This document shows, piece by piece, positions 2,097-60,160 of a stretch of 64,000 nt of DNA. A program made the translations under genes and the position numbers. The notes under the pieces were generated by a model. That model made no database searches. It saw only the letters and a list, made by a program, of their open reading frames with translations, and was not told where the DNA came from. Each line of letters opens with the position of its first letter. Position 1 is the first letter of the stretch. Source of the stretch: Natrinema mahii (GTDB taxonomy: Archaea > Halobacteriota > Halobacteria > Halobacteriales > Natrialbaceae); assembly GCA_000690595.2 (NCBI GenBank), contig JHUT02000002.1, positions 272,878 to 336,877 on the forward strand. The letters run 5' to 3'.

Positions 2097-2182
2097 CTAT
2101 AGGAGCCGTTGCAACGATTCACACACTGATCGCAACGCTGTCATGCGATCAGGTGTGCAATGACTTTCAGCGGCTACTATAG
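2097..2182. repeat. 86-bp palindromic repeat family 1, copy A
   Basis: Starts and ends with CTATAG. The outer arms pair (TAGCCGCTGAAA / TTGCAACGGCTCC in reverse orientation) and the inner arms carry CACACTGATCGCA / TGCGATCAGGTGTG, so almost the whole element folds as one hairpin. It is the reverse complement of copy B (36901-36986), with the same 86-bp length and only a few mismatches. It lies 18 bp after the stop codon of the Pta-like gene, so it may end that transcript. No coding capacity. Confidence 0.85.
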
Positions 2183-34187: not shown

Positions 34188-34272
34188 CGGGATGGCACTT
34201 GGTTCAGAAGAGACAGGCATCGCCTGTTTCACTGACCCGTAGGAGCAGTCCTGCGTACTACGGAGGTGAACG
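34188..34272 (+). promoter_or_regulatory. rpl1 operon leader, probable L1 autoregulatory site
   Basis: The leader holds GGGATGGCACTTGG followed by a near-perfect hairpin GAGACAGGC-ATC-GCCTGTTTC (34210-34230), then a strong Shine-Dalgarno GGAGGTGA at 34262-34269. In Halobacterium and Methanococcus the L1 operon leader imitates the 23S rRNA L1 site and L1 represses translation (established knowledge). I infer the same here. The long leader and SD contrast with the leaderless genes around it. The exact transcription start is uncertain. Confidence 0.55.
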
Positions 34273-34905
34273 ATGGCAGATTCGGATATTGAAACAGCAG
34301 TAGCCCGCGCACTCGAGGACTCGCCGGACCGGAACTTTACCGAGACGGTAGACCTCGCGATTAATCTGCGCGACTTAGACCTGAACGAACCGTCGAACCG
34401 CGTTGACGAGTCGATCGTCCTGCCGGCCGGAACCGGCCAGGAGACCCGCATCGTCGTCATCGCCGAGGGAGAGACCGCAGTCCGCGCCGAGGAGGCGGCG
34501 GACGACGTTCTCTCGGCAGATGACGTGGCGGATCTGGACGACGACGAGGCCAAGGATATGGCCGACGAGACGGACTTCTTCATCGCCGAAGAGGCGATGA
34601 TGCAAGACATCGCCCGGCACCTGGGTACCATTCTCGGTCCCCGGGGGAAGATGCCGGACCCGCTCTCGCCCGACGACGACGTCGTCGAAACCGTCAACCG
34701 GCTCAAAAACACCGTGCAGCTTCGCTCCGGCGACCGACGAACCTTCCACACCCTCGTCGGTGCCGAGGACATGGACGCCGAAGATATCGGCGACAACATC
34801 GACGTCATCCTGCGACGCCTGCACGCCGACCTCGAGAAGGGGCCCCAGAACATCGACGCCGTCTACGTCAAGACGACGATGGGGCCGTCCGTGGAGGTGG
34901 CCTAA
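34273..34905 (+). CDS. rpl1: 50S ribosomal protein L1
   Basis: A 210-aa archaeal uL1. [20 protein letters not shown] and [20 protein letters not shown] are family signatures; the C-terminus [11 protein letters not shown] returns to the rRNA-binding domain. L1 forms the mobile stalk beside the E site and probably represses its own operon through the leader. The stop is directly followed by the rpl10 start. Confidence 0.95.
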
Positions 34906-35955
34906 ATGAGCGCTCAGGCCGAACGCAAGACCGAGAACCTTCCCCAGTGGAAGAAAGAGGAAGTCGCGGAGCTCGAGGAGATCATCGAGCGCTACGACAG
35001 CATCGGCATCGTCGGTATCGCCGGCATCCCCTCGAAACAGCTTCAGGACATGCGCCGCGACCTGTACGGCACGGCCCAGCTGCGGGTCAGCCGTAACACG
35101 CTCCAGACCCGCGCGCTGGAAGACGCCGGCCTCGGCGACCTCGTCGAACACGTCGAGGGTCAGGTCGGTATCGTCGGCACGAACGAGAACCCGTTCTCGC
35201 TGTACAAGGAGCTCGAGGCGTCGAAGACGCCGGCACCGATCAACGAGGGCGAGGTCGCGCCGAACGACATCGTGATCCCCGAAGGGGACACCGGTGTCGA
35301 TCCGGGGCCGTTCGTCGGCGAACTCCAGAGCATCGGCGCGAACGCGCGCATCGAGGACGGCTCGATTCAGGTCATGGAGGACTCGACGGTCTTAGCGGCC
35401 GGCGAGGAAGTCTCCGCGGATCTGGCCAACGTCCTCAACGAACTCGGGATCGAGCCCAAGGAAGTCGGGCTCGACCTGCGCGCCGTCGTCGCCGACGGTG
35501 TTCGCTTCGACCCCGAGGACCTCGACATCGACGTCGAGGCCTACGAGAGCGACGTGTCGACGGCTGCCGCCCGCGCACGGAACCTCGCGGTCAACGCGAG
35601 CTTCCCGACCGCGAGCACGGCCCCGACGCTCATCGCCAAGGCCACGGGCGAGGCCAAGAGCCTCGGCCTGCAGGCCGCCATCGAGGACGAAGAGCTGATG
35701 CCCGACCTCGTCAGCAAGGCCGACGCACAGCTGCGTGCGCTCGCGGCCCAGATCGACGACGAGGATGCCCTGCCGGAGGAACTGCAGGACGTCGATGCGG
35801 CCGCCCAGCCGGCGGCCGCCGACGAGGGCGACGCTGACGACGAATCGGCAGACGACCAGACGGACGAGACCGAGGCCGACGACGCCGACGCCGACGACGA
35901 TGACGACGAAGACGACGGCGACGGCGCGGCCGGTCTCGGCGAGATGTTCGGATAA
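34906..35955 (+). CDS. rpl10: 50S ribosomal protein L10 (P0)
   Basis: A 349-aa archaeal uL10/P0, base of the stalk that holds L12 dimers. The rRNA-binding N-terminus ([20 protein letters not shown]) and the archaeal insertion domain are present. The long C-terminus ends in an Asp/Glu/Ala run and [10 protein letters not shown], the tail shared with L12 that binds translation factors. The ATG immediately follows the rpl1 TAA. Confidence 0.95.
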
Positions 35956-35973
35956 CTAACGGAGGACCCAACA

Positions 35974-36324
35974 ATGGAATACGTATACGCTGCACTCATC
36001 CTGAACGAATCGGGCGAAGAGATCAACGAAGACAACCTGACGAACGTGCTCGACGCCGCGGGCGTCGACGTCGAGGAGTCCCGCGTCAAGGCCCTCGTCG
36101 CCGCGCTCGAGGACGTCGACATCGACGACGCGGTCTCCGAGGCCGCAGCCGTCCCCGCCGGCGGGGCCGCCGCTGGCGGCGCTGCAGGTGCCGAGGAAGC
36201 TGCCGACGACGGCGACGACGAAGCCGAGGAAGCCGAAGAGACCAGCGACGTGCCGGACACGACGGACGACGACGACGAAGACGACGAGGCCGACGGCGAG
36301 GGTCTCGGCGAACTCTTCGGATAA
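35974..36324 (+). CDS. rpl12: 50S ribosomal protein L12 (P1)
   Basis: A 116-aa archaeal P1-type stalk protein. The N-terminal dimerisation helices ([20 protein letters not shown]) are followed by an Ala/Gly hinge ([20 protein letters not shown]), an extreme acidic stretch and the factor-binding tail EGLGELFG. Last gene of the L1-L10-L12 operon, 18 bp after rpl10, preceded by GGAGGA. Confidence 0.95.
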
Positions 36325-36779
36325 CGTTCCCGTCGGTTCGGCTCCGACGAGTTGCAATCCCGAATTTTCTTTCGACTCGAGATCGAGTGGCGACGCCGAT
36401 CGAGGCCGAAACCGGAATCAGATTGTCTCCGAGAGTGGCGATGGTGAGTACAGTAGCGGTCAGGCTACTTACTGAGCGACGATTAATTACGGGGCCGAGA
36501 CCAATACACCCGGCGACGTTGGTGGGACGATTGAGGGTTGAGTCGACGGTAAGAACGCGTTTGAGTGCGATGAAGGCCACATCTCTCTGTGACTACCACC
36601 TCGTATCCCTTCTTCAGATCTTGTATTTCTTGCTAAGATCAATCTCAGGACACGTACTGGTGCGTCCCCGAGGACATTAGCGGTCACCGTCTCTTGAAGA
36701 TCCGTGATAGATATCCTATTTATCCAAGTATAATTTTATATAGAAAGTATTAATATAATATGTTTTAAACTTGGCTTTG
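36325..36779. other. AT-rich spacer at the edge of the accessory island
   Basis: About 455 bp without a convincing gene; short frames on both strands lack protein-like composition. GC falls steadily after rpl12. TTATATAG at 36737-36744 followed by TATTAATATAATATG looks like a promoter for the split halocin gene. Confidence 0.5.
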
Positions 36780-37758
36780 ATGACACGAGAAGAAGACGAT
36801 AATGGTAGTGACGGTACCCCATCATTCAATCGACGTAACGCATTACAAACAATCAGTGGGGGAATGTTCGCCCTAACTGGACTCTCAGGAACCGGGGGTG
36901 CTATAGTAGCCGCTGAAAGTCATTGCACACCTGATCGCACGATAGCGTTGCGATCAGTGTGTAAATCGTTTCAACGGCTACTATAGCCAATCAGATACAG
37001 ATGATGTCCCCCTTCCAGATGTAGAAGAGCTATCCGGCGATGAAAAGAAAAAATACATTTTGAAGGCATCGGCCTCTCCTGAATACAAAACGTTACTGCG
37101 AGAGTCGTCGATAGTTTCTCGCCGGTCAGTCCAACTCGATGATTCCAGAGTAGTGCGTTCGGAGTGGAAAGAGTCCTCAAAAGAAAGCGGCCCACGGCAC
37201 ATCGTCGAATTCCCTGTGAAATCTTCTCCAGATCGCGGTCGAAAAGGAAGAACAACAGACGATGAAGACGGAGATACAGTTGTCAACGTAGTATTCGAAT
37301 CGGATGGTTCGGTCTCAGCCAAGGCGACACGCTTCAAGGATGGTGAAGACGGTGATATCACAATACAACTTGATGTAACGACCAACGAGGTTACTGCTCA
37401 GCGAGCGAGTAACCAAGGAGGCGTTAGATTAGAATCGACGACTGAAACAGTCAATCCCTCAAAGGGGGTATACCCAACCGACCCCTCGGAAGTGACGATA
37501 CAGGGGCACGGTTGTGGATGCACATTGAAATGCAGTCTCTGTGTTCAGATATACAAACATGTCTGTAAGCATGGGTGTTGGGGAGGTGCTTCAACTATCT
37601 GCGCAGTACTTGATATTGGCGGTATCCCAGGAAGTCTCACGTGTGCGACTATCGCAAGAACCGTGTGCAGGAAAGAAACATCGAGTTGGGATTGCGGTAG
37701 TCTGGCAGCCCAGAAGTTCTGCAACAAGAACTTCGACCTCTGTGACGCAGTTCTATAA
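36780..37758 (+). pseudogene. halocin C8-like bacteriocin precursor, split by an 86-bp repeat
   Basis: Part 1 (from ATG 36780): a 40-residue start with Tat motif, NRRNALQTISGGMFALTGLS. Part 2 (after 36987, other frame): propeptide region (LPDVEELSGDEKKKYILKAS, then PRHIVEFPVKSS) and a C-terminal Cys-rich peptide from ~37500 with 12 cysteines (CGCTLKCSLC; HVCKHGCWGGASTIC; CGSLAAQKFC). This order and Cys pattern match halocin C8 precursors, whose mature peptide has 10 Cys and kills other haloarchaea. The repeat (36901-36986) breaks the frame; removing 85 bp would rejoin the parts as GTGG-AQ-SDTDD, giving ~296 aa. AT-rich compared with neighbours. Confidence 0.75.
36901..36986. repeat. 86-bp palindromic repeat family 1, copy B (inside halocin gene)
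   Basis: CTATAGTAGCCGCTGAAA at the left and TTTCAACGGCTACTATAG at the right are near-perfect inverted arms; CACCTGATCGCA / TGCGATCAGTGTGT are the inner arms. It is the reverse complement of copy A, with ~93% identity by eye. It has no gene of its own. Insertion adds a frameshift and stop codons to the halocin gene. No clear target duplication is seen. Confidence 0.9.
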
Positions 37759-37811
37759 GTTCAACATCCTACAATCACCTACTTTATTAATTGACATTAT
37801 AGTATTTATTT

Positions 37812-37997
37812 CTATAGGATTCCTCGACAATAGTTGTAAGAAGCTACGAGTAGTATGAACCCAACCCCTATAATGATACTTTCGGCTGCCAGCCCAAATA
37901 TACTGCCCCGACCAAACATAAAATTCACCAAAAAGTAGATGACAATAAGAATTAATCCCTGTTCCACGATGACTCTCTTTTCATTCGACTCCAACAT
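37812..37997 (-). CDS. two-helix membrane miniprotein next to halocin gene
   Basis: 61 aa, convergent to the halocin gene. Two strong helices (VEQGLILIVIYFLVNFMFG; AESIIIGVGFILLVASYNY), basic N-terminus, AT-rich codons like the halocin gene. Its place suggests a possible immunity or accessory protein, but C8-type immunity is normally carried within the precursor, so this is a guess. Could also be spurious. Confidence 0.4.
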   Translation of the reverse strand: MLESNEKRVIVEQGLILIVIYFLVNFMFGRGSIFGLAAESIIIGVGFILLVASYNYCRGIL

Positions 37998-38129
37998 ATT
38001 TCCGAATTAATATTGGGTATATTAAATGTCTTGCTTTTGTATAGCGTGCCAGAACCAAGTCACGTCACGAGGGTCGTCCAAAATTGAGGGTATAATGTGG
38101 TTCAGTCCGACCGGTACCACCATATCAGG

Positions 38130-38455
38130 TCGTGTGCATTAACAGCAGCGACGACCGGCGAGCGAGCGGCCCGCCTTGAGACCCTGTCGACGCTCAGCGA
38201 GACTGCTTTGAGCCCGTGGGAGGGTGATCTCGGCGAGCATTACGGGGGACTCGAGGAAACCCACATCGACGGCTTCGAGCAACACAAACGACGGATTCAC
38301 GGTCCAACCGTGACGACTTGCTCGACGCGTTCGTACTCGCGGCTACGTCGCAAGCGAGCAATCTCCGGCGGCTCTCGTCGTTGCGGATAGCGCGATTTCA
38401 ACCGACGACGAGACCGGCTTCCCCCAGGAAATCGTCGATCACGATCCGGAACAGT
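38130..38455 (+). pseudogene. decayed DUF429-like gene
   Basis: Three frames must be joined. The first reads ALSPWEGDLGEHYGGLEETH; from 38312 another frame reads DDLLDAFVLAATSQASNLRR; then ADSAISTDDETGFPQEIV follows in a third. The DDLLDAFVLA and DxETGxPQEIV segments resemble the C-terminus of DUF429 (RNase H-fold) proteins. No start or intact N-terminus remains. It marks the right side of the accessory island. Confidence 0.5.
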
Positions 38456-38503
38456 GAGGCGATGCCCGAGATCATATAAACGAAGCCGCGGCCAGAGCCG
38501 GAG

Positions 38504-59831: not shown

Positions 59832-60095
59832 ATGCAATCGCTGGCCTCGATCGTCGACCGAACCGACGCACCGGACGACCGACCGCAGGAGACGATCGAC
59901 GTCCGGTCTGCCGGGCCGCCGGAGCCGCTCCAACGCACGCTCGAGACGCTCGTCGAACTGCCCGACGAGACGGTTCTCGTCCAGCGAAACGACCGCGTTC
60001 CCCAGTTCCTCTTCCCGAAACTGGACGACCGTGGCTACGGCTACGAGACGGTCGAACGCGACGACGACGTCGTGACCGTCATCTGGCGTGTCTAA
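59832..60095 (+). CDS. DUF2249 protein 3
   Basis: 87 aa, more diverged than the other two: ETIDVRSAGPPEPLQRTLET and ETVLVQRNDRVPQFLFPKLD, with an N-terminal extension of ~18 residues. The family-1 palindromic repeat copy C begins immediately after its stop codon. Confidence 0.8.
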   Translation: MQSLASIVDRTDAPDDRPQETIDVRSAGPPEPLQRTLETLVELPDETVLVQRNDRVPQFLFPKLDDRGYGYETVERDDDVVTVIWRV

Positions 60096-60160
60096 CATTG
60101 TACATCTGATCGCAGACCGCATCGCGATCAGTGTGTAACTCGTTTCAGTGGCCACTAGAG
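60096..60160. repeat. truncated palindromic repeat family 1, copy C
   Basis: Matches copy B from CATTGCACACCTGATCGCA to the right end: CATTGTACATCTGATCGCA, GCGATCAGTGTGTAACTCG and TTTCAGTGGCCACTAGAG. The left outer arm is missing, replaced by the end of the DUF2249 gene. More diverged than copies A and B. Confidence 0.75.

What the first reader, a model, noticed from the sequence alone, without database searches (positions are those of the whole stretch)
36780..37758. Halocin C8-like bacteriocin gene interrupted by an 86-bp palindromic element
The two pieces have the right order for a halocin C8 precursor: Tat start, propeptide, then a C-terminal peptide with 12 Cys in a HalC8-like pattern. 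The repeat lies between signal and propeptide and breaks the frame. Removing 85 bp restores one ~296-aa frame with GTGGAQSDTDD at the join. The repeat thus looks mobile, and the gene looks recently lost. A variant with two extra Cys may be a new C8-type halocin.
Basis: partly seen in the sequence, partly recalled or inferred. Interest (0 to 1): 0.82.

Follow-up and report, generated by a model that had tools for sequence, protein, structure and literature searches.

The report
Halocin gene broken by mobile palindrome
In this salt-loving archaeon (genus Natrinema) a gene for a halocin C8-like antimicrobial peptide has very recently been broken by an 80-base mobile repeat present about 125 times in the genome, while two related genomes still carry the unbroken gene: a clear but ordinary case of a small transposable element knocking out a bacteriocin gene.

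Summary
The 3' reading frame carries a halocin C8 domain (NCBIfam TIGR04449, 48 bits, cut-off 24). Two same-genus genomes, one named Natrinema thermotolerans DSM 11552, hold the gene uninterrupted (299 and 298 aa) at the same place beside the ribosomal L12 gene. Compared with them the window has a net insertion of 82 bp: an 80-bp imperfect palindrome (36904-36983) plus a duplicated TA. The element has about 125 copies in this genome, occurs in 28 of 29 genus genomes, sits mainly outside ordinary genes, and enters TA within CTAG. Resident IS630-family insertion sequences share its target and terminal repeat (19-21 of 27 bases), so it is best read as an IS630-type MITE moved in trans. The intact gene has one CTAG among 39 TAs: the insertion site. 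Outside the insert the gene is identical to N. thermotolerans over 894 nt while nearby flanks differ by 1-4%, so the break is recent. The 12-Cys peptide keeps all ten HalC8-type cysteines plus an upstream CGC: a subtype, not a new class. N. pallidum carries an independently decayed copy.

The parts
36780..36903 (+). 5' fragment of the halocin C8-like precursor gene: ATG start and twin-arginine (Tat) signal region, up to the CTAG insertion site
   Evidence: identical to the intact gene of N. thermotolerans over 123 nt
36904..36983 (+). 80-bp imperfect palindrome, IS630-type MITE
   Evidence: empty site in two relatives; about 125 copies in the genome; target and terminal repeat shared with IS630-family elements
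36902..36903 (+). TA target site, left copy
36984..36985 (+). TA target site, duplicated right copy; with G36986 it forms the premature stop TAG of ORF 1
36988..37758 (+). 3' fragment of the precursor gene: HalI-like part and Cys-rich peptide, in a frame shifted from the 5' fragment
   Evidence: 0 differences over 771 nt from the intact gene of N. thermotolerans; full-length similarity to halocin C8-type precursors
37531..37743 (+). halocin C8 domain (TIGR04449)
   Evidence: 48.2 bits, cut-off 24, E 1.6e-12
37513..37521 (+). CGC motif: the two cysteines beyond the ten of HalC8-type peptides
   Evidence: domain survey
2100..2179 (-). second copy of the MITE in the window
   Evidence: G000:C2:274977-275056
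60084..60154 (+). degenerate copy of the MITE
   Evidence: G000:C2:332961-333031, 34.9 bits, E 4.5e-6

Best explanation
A halocin C8-type precursor gene (Tat signal, HalI-like immunity part, Cys-rich peptide) next to the ribosomal L12 gene was inactivated very recently by insertion of an 80-bp IS630-type MITE. Shown: the element is a dispersed repeat; relatives have the empty site CTAG; the insertion added 80 bp plus a second TA, which shifts the frame, and the target duplication itself supplies the stop codon. Inferred: an IS630-family transposase acting in trans moved the element and pasted it into the TA of the gene's only CTAG. Inferred: because in halocin C8 one gene makes both peptide and immunity protein, a single hit removes killing and self-protection together, so no self-killing intermediate arises.
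For: TIGR04449 domain above cut-off in the window and in both intact relatives. Intact gene at the same locus in G025 (N. thermotolerans DSM 11552, AOIR01000038.1) and G014. Net 82-bp difference exactly at CTAG; 0 differences in 123 + 771 nt outside it against G025. About 125 copies in the genome, 28 of 29 genus genomes positive. 70 of 78 distinct copies flanked TA/TA, 52 of 78 CTA/TAG. IS630-family elements in the genome and genus with the same target and TIR, 19-21 of 27 identical positions for one end, beyond nearly all of 20,000 shuffles. The intact gene has one CTAG among 39 TA. IS630 preference for TA in CTAG: Tenzen and Ohtsubo 1991, seen as a title in the reference list of PMC2170065; TA duplication by ISY100, PMC2170065.
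Against: No transposition was observed. The IS630 transposases of G000 are each split into two frames and may be inactive; G025 and G015, rich in MITEs, have no PF13358 match. Similarity to the IS is limited to the ends. Three copies in G000 have symmetrical non-TA flanks that a TA duplication does not explain. Halocin activity of the intact relatives is not known.
Confidence: 0.92

Rival explanations
1. The palindrome is a mobile repeat of another kind (a small mobile repeat or REP-like element moved by an IS200/IS605-type or unknown enzyme), inserted without duplication between T and A of CTAG; the 82 bp would then be the whole element.
For: An 82-bp insertion without duplication gives the same sequence as 80 bp plus TA at CTAG. 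Copies with GA...TC flanks fit it as well or better. Haloquadratum has small mobile repeats without target duplication, one only 80 bp long (PMC3119063). Some MITE-rich genomes lack an IS630.
Against: The ends match IS630 elements at 19-21 of 27 positions, and both kinds sit in TA, mostly within CTAG.
Confidence: 0.07
2. The gene still works: +1 ribosomal frameshifting inside the repeat, where both frames are open (36946-36983), joins signal and precursor through the element.
For: Both frames are open through the overlap, and no lesion other than the insertion is present.
Against: No frameshift signal is established; both intact relatives lack the element; the insertion looks too recent for further lesions to have built up, so their absence says little.
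Confidence: 0.01

Closest known systems
Halocin C8 precursor ProC8 (halC8; domain TIGR04449)
   Same: Tat-type start, about 290-aa precursor, Cys-rich C-terminal peptide with the ten cysteines of the family, similarity along the whole length
   Different: Interrupted in the window; an extra CGC before the first canonical Cys; low sequence identity to canonical members; no activity data
IS630 family insertion sequences (Tc1/mariner superfamily) and their MITEs
   Same: TA duplication, CTAG preference, related terminal inverted repeats
   Different: Only 80 bp, nearly the whole length palindromic, no transposase, interior unrelated to the IS
MITEs and small mobile repeats of Haloquadratum walsbyi (PMC3119063)
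   Same: Short transposase-free repeats with inverted ends in high copy; MITEs there too share only terminal bases with the helper transposon, and some moved with no functional helper found in the genome
   Different: IS630 is not named in the main text of that paper; its supplementary lists could not be compared by sequence

Membership tests
Halocin C8 family | C-terminal halocin C8 domain above the curated cut-off | tested here: met
   48.2 bits against 24; intact relatives 48 bits
Halocin C8 family | Ten conserved cysteines of the peptide | tested here: met
   all ten aligned, two more upstream
Halocin C8 family | Tat signal and immunity part in one precursor | tested here: met
   RR motif and full-length similarity to such precursors in the intact relatives; in the window they are separated by the insert. 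That the middle part confers immunity is inferred.
Halocin C8 family | Antimicrobial and immunity activity | not testable with these tools
   needs an assay
IS630-type MITE | TA target duplication | tested here: met
   TA/TA in 70 of 78 copies; empty site CTAG in two relatives; formally an 82-bp insertion without duplication cannot be told apart at this site
IS630-type MITE | Terminal inverted repeats related to an IS630-family element | tested here: met
   19-21 of 27 positions for the left end, 18-19 for the right, against one IS end
IS630-type MITE | No transposase of its own, multiple dispersed copies | tested here: met
   80 bp; about 125 copies
IS630-type MITE | Mobilisation by that transposase | not testable with these tools
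   needs a transposition assay
Rfam RNA families | Match at gathering threshold | tested here: not met
   best hit STnc450, 17.9 bits against 37, E 0.29

The most novel reading that the evidence does not exclude
Nearly full-length palindromic MITEs with co-varying arms, which occupy many of the rare CTAG sites of haloarchaeal genomes and lie mostly outside ordinary genes, may have a cellular role (for example as transcript-end hairpins) rather than being pure parasites; the halocin hit would be a rare stray insertion.
Probability: 0.1. Interest if true: 0.55.

Novelty: new member of a known kind. Interest (0 to 1): 0.32.

Why it matters
It gives a clean natural knock-out of a gene of a kind that encodes both an archaeal bacteriocin and its immunity, with an intact, otherwise identical gene in N. 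thermotolerans as the matching control, so the cost of losing killing and immunity together can be tested. It is also a recent, well-bounded example of IS630-type MITE insertion in haloarchaea, with site choice explained by the gene's single CTAG.

Tried and rejected
Pfam gave no halocin family. Rfam gave nothing at threshold. Other IS630 subgroups of the genus have different ends. One copy with GA/TC flanks was compared with relatives to read its empty site; the locus was too diverged to decide. The first DNA alignment used the relatives in the wrong orientation and was uninformative at the site; the site was read directly instead. Misassembly was rejected because both flanks match one syntenic locus in two relatives. 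Structure prediction was not run: it would not settle disulphide pairing or activity. The flanks of the interrupted gene were not joined; natural intact relatives were used.

Full report
Observation. ORF 1 starts at ATG 36780 with a twin-arginine start and ends at TAG 36984-36986 after 68 codons, the last 27 or so read from the repeat. The downstream frame is open from 36946 to 37758 and carries the halocin C8 domain TIGR04449 at 48.2 bits, cut-off 24. The repeat lies exactly between.

Empty site. Two same-genus genomes have the gene uninterrupted at the same place, beside the L12 gene: G025 with 299 aa and G014 with 298 aa. The G025 contig is Natrinema thermotolerans DSM 11552, AOIR01000038.1. 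At the site they read GGTGCTAGCCAATC and AGTGCTAGCGAATC; the window reads GGTGCTA, then 80 bp, then TAGCCAATC. So the net insertion is 82 bp, 80 plus a TA duplication, not 85 or 86. It is not a multiple of three, hence the frameshift, and the duplicated TA plus the G of the target forms the stop codon.

Age. Outside the insert, window and G025 are identical over 123 + 771 nt, silent sites included, while neighbouring 250-bp bins are mostly 96-99% identical and bins beyond about 38.75 kb fall to 88-95%. I infer a recent exchange of the gene between the lineages, followed by the insertion. G014 differs from the window at 12 sites in the 3' piece (7 amino-acid-changing and 5 silent codons), which gives no sign of strong purifying selection. 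N. pallidum DSM 3751 (G013; L192, L194) has only a remnant: the 5' half is missing and the peptide frame is broken. So the locus has decayed at least twice.

The element. BLAST finds over 40 strong copies in the genome. A covariance model built from 28 copies finds 147 hits, about 126 distinct places after I removed hits to both strands, with the candidate limit reached. It occurs in 28 of 29 genus genomes (the remaining one gave a partial match) and in 42 of 195 sampled genomes of the order. Of 78 distinct copies read with flanks, 70 have TA on both sides and 52 have CTA...TAG. G000 has two IS630-family elements (PF13358) and the genus has many; one common group is about 1055 bp long, flanked by TA and mostly CTA...TAG, with an end like TAGTAGACGTTAGAAATAATTGCTCAC. 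The left end of the MITE matches such ends at 19-21 of 27 positions and its right end at 18-19; shuffles of the IS end reach this in none to five of 20,000. IS630 of Shigella prefers TA in CTAG (title of Tenzen and Ohtsubo 1991 in the reference list of PMC2170065), and ISY100 duplicated TA in 34 of 39 insertions, the rest being AA/TT or one-sided (PMC2170065). This fits the rule and some exceptions, though three copies with symmetrical non-TA flanks stay unexplained.

Site choice. CTAG occurs 15 times in the window against 198 expected from base composition. The intact halocin gene has 39 TA but one CTAG, and that is where the element sits. By a codon-usage test none of 45 copies in this genome has typical coding sequence on both sides on one strand, against 245 of 500 random window positions. 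The test cannot see genes of unusual composition: the halocin gene itself (about 49% GC against 66.6% for the window) scores as non-coding. So most copies avoid ordinary genes, and this AT-rich, foreign-looking gene was hit.

Hairpin. Paired positions of the palindrome change together (18 double-change cells against 4.0 in shuffles; 94% of cells paired). This is expected if one transposase binds both ends, and does not by itself show an RNA role.

The peptide. It keeps all ten cysteines of HalC8-type peptides and adds CGC before the first. Locus L126 (G001) carries a canonical ten-Cys domain. Other members with 11-12 Cys have the extra ones elsewhere, so in this sample the CGC form is confined to this gene and its orthologues in G025 and G014. 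Whether the pair lies in the mature peptide is unknown. Halocin C8 is made from a 283-aa Tat-exported precursor that also yields the immunity protein HalI (PMC11509114, PMC3831642); similarity over about 290 aa to such precursors suggests the same plan here. The window genome has a second, uninterrupted C8-like gene on contig C16 (L125).

Verdict. It is a well-resolved but ordinary event.

Noticed in passing
G000 contig C14:36460-69474 (L222, L223): 15 copies of the MITE lie within about 33 kb, far denser than elsewhere, where G+C falls to 50-60%; the region looks like an island.
   Followed up: partly
window 34250-38500: Identity to N. thermotolerans is mostly 96-100% here and about 80-95% outside, with the halocin gene at 100%: a conserved or recently exchanged tract around ribosomal genes and halocin gene.
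   Followed up: partly
L063 (G000:C4:183171-183330) and L069 (G025:C33): Same flanks hold two head-to-tail copies with an 80-bp period in G000 but one copy in G025; a second insertion with TA duplication would give 82, so recombination between copies is more likely.
   Followed up: partly
L070, L071, L072 (G025): Identical doubled copies of the MITE with a single N between or beside them look like assembly joins at the repeat.
   Followed up: no
L125 (G000:C16:13550-13759): A second, uninterrupted halocin C8-like gene with ten Cys in the window genome.
   Followed up: partly
window, whole: CTAG is about 13-fold rarer than base composition predicts (15 against 198).
   Followed up: partly
L037, L038, L039 (G000): Three MITE copies with GA or AA on the left and TC on the right instead of TA/TA; the mechanism of these insertions is unexplained.
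   Followed up: partly
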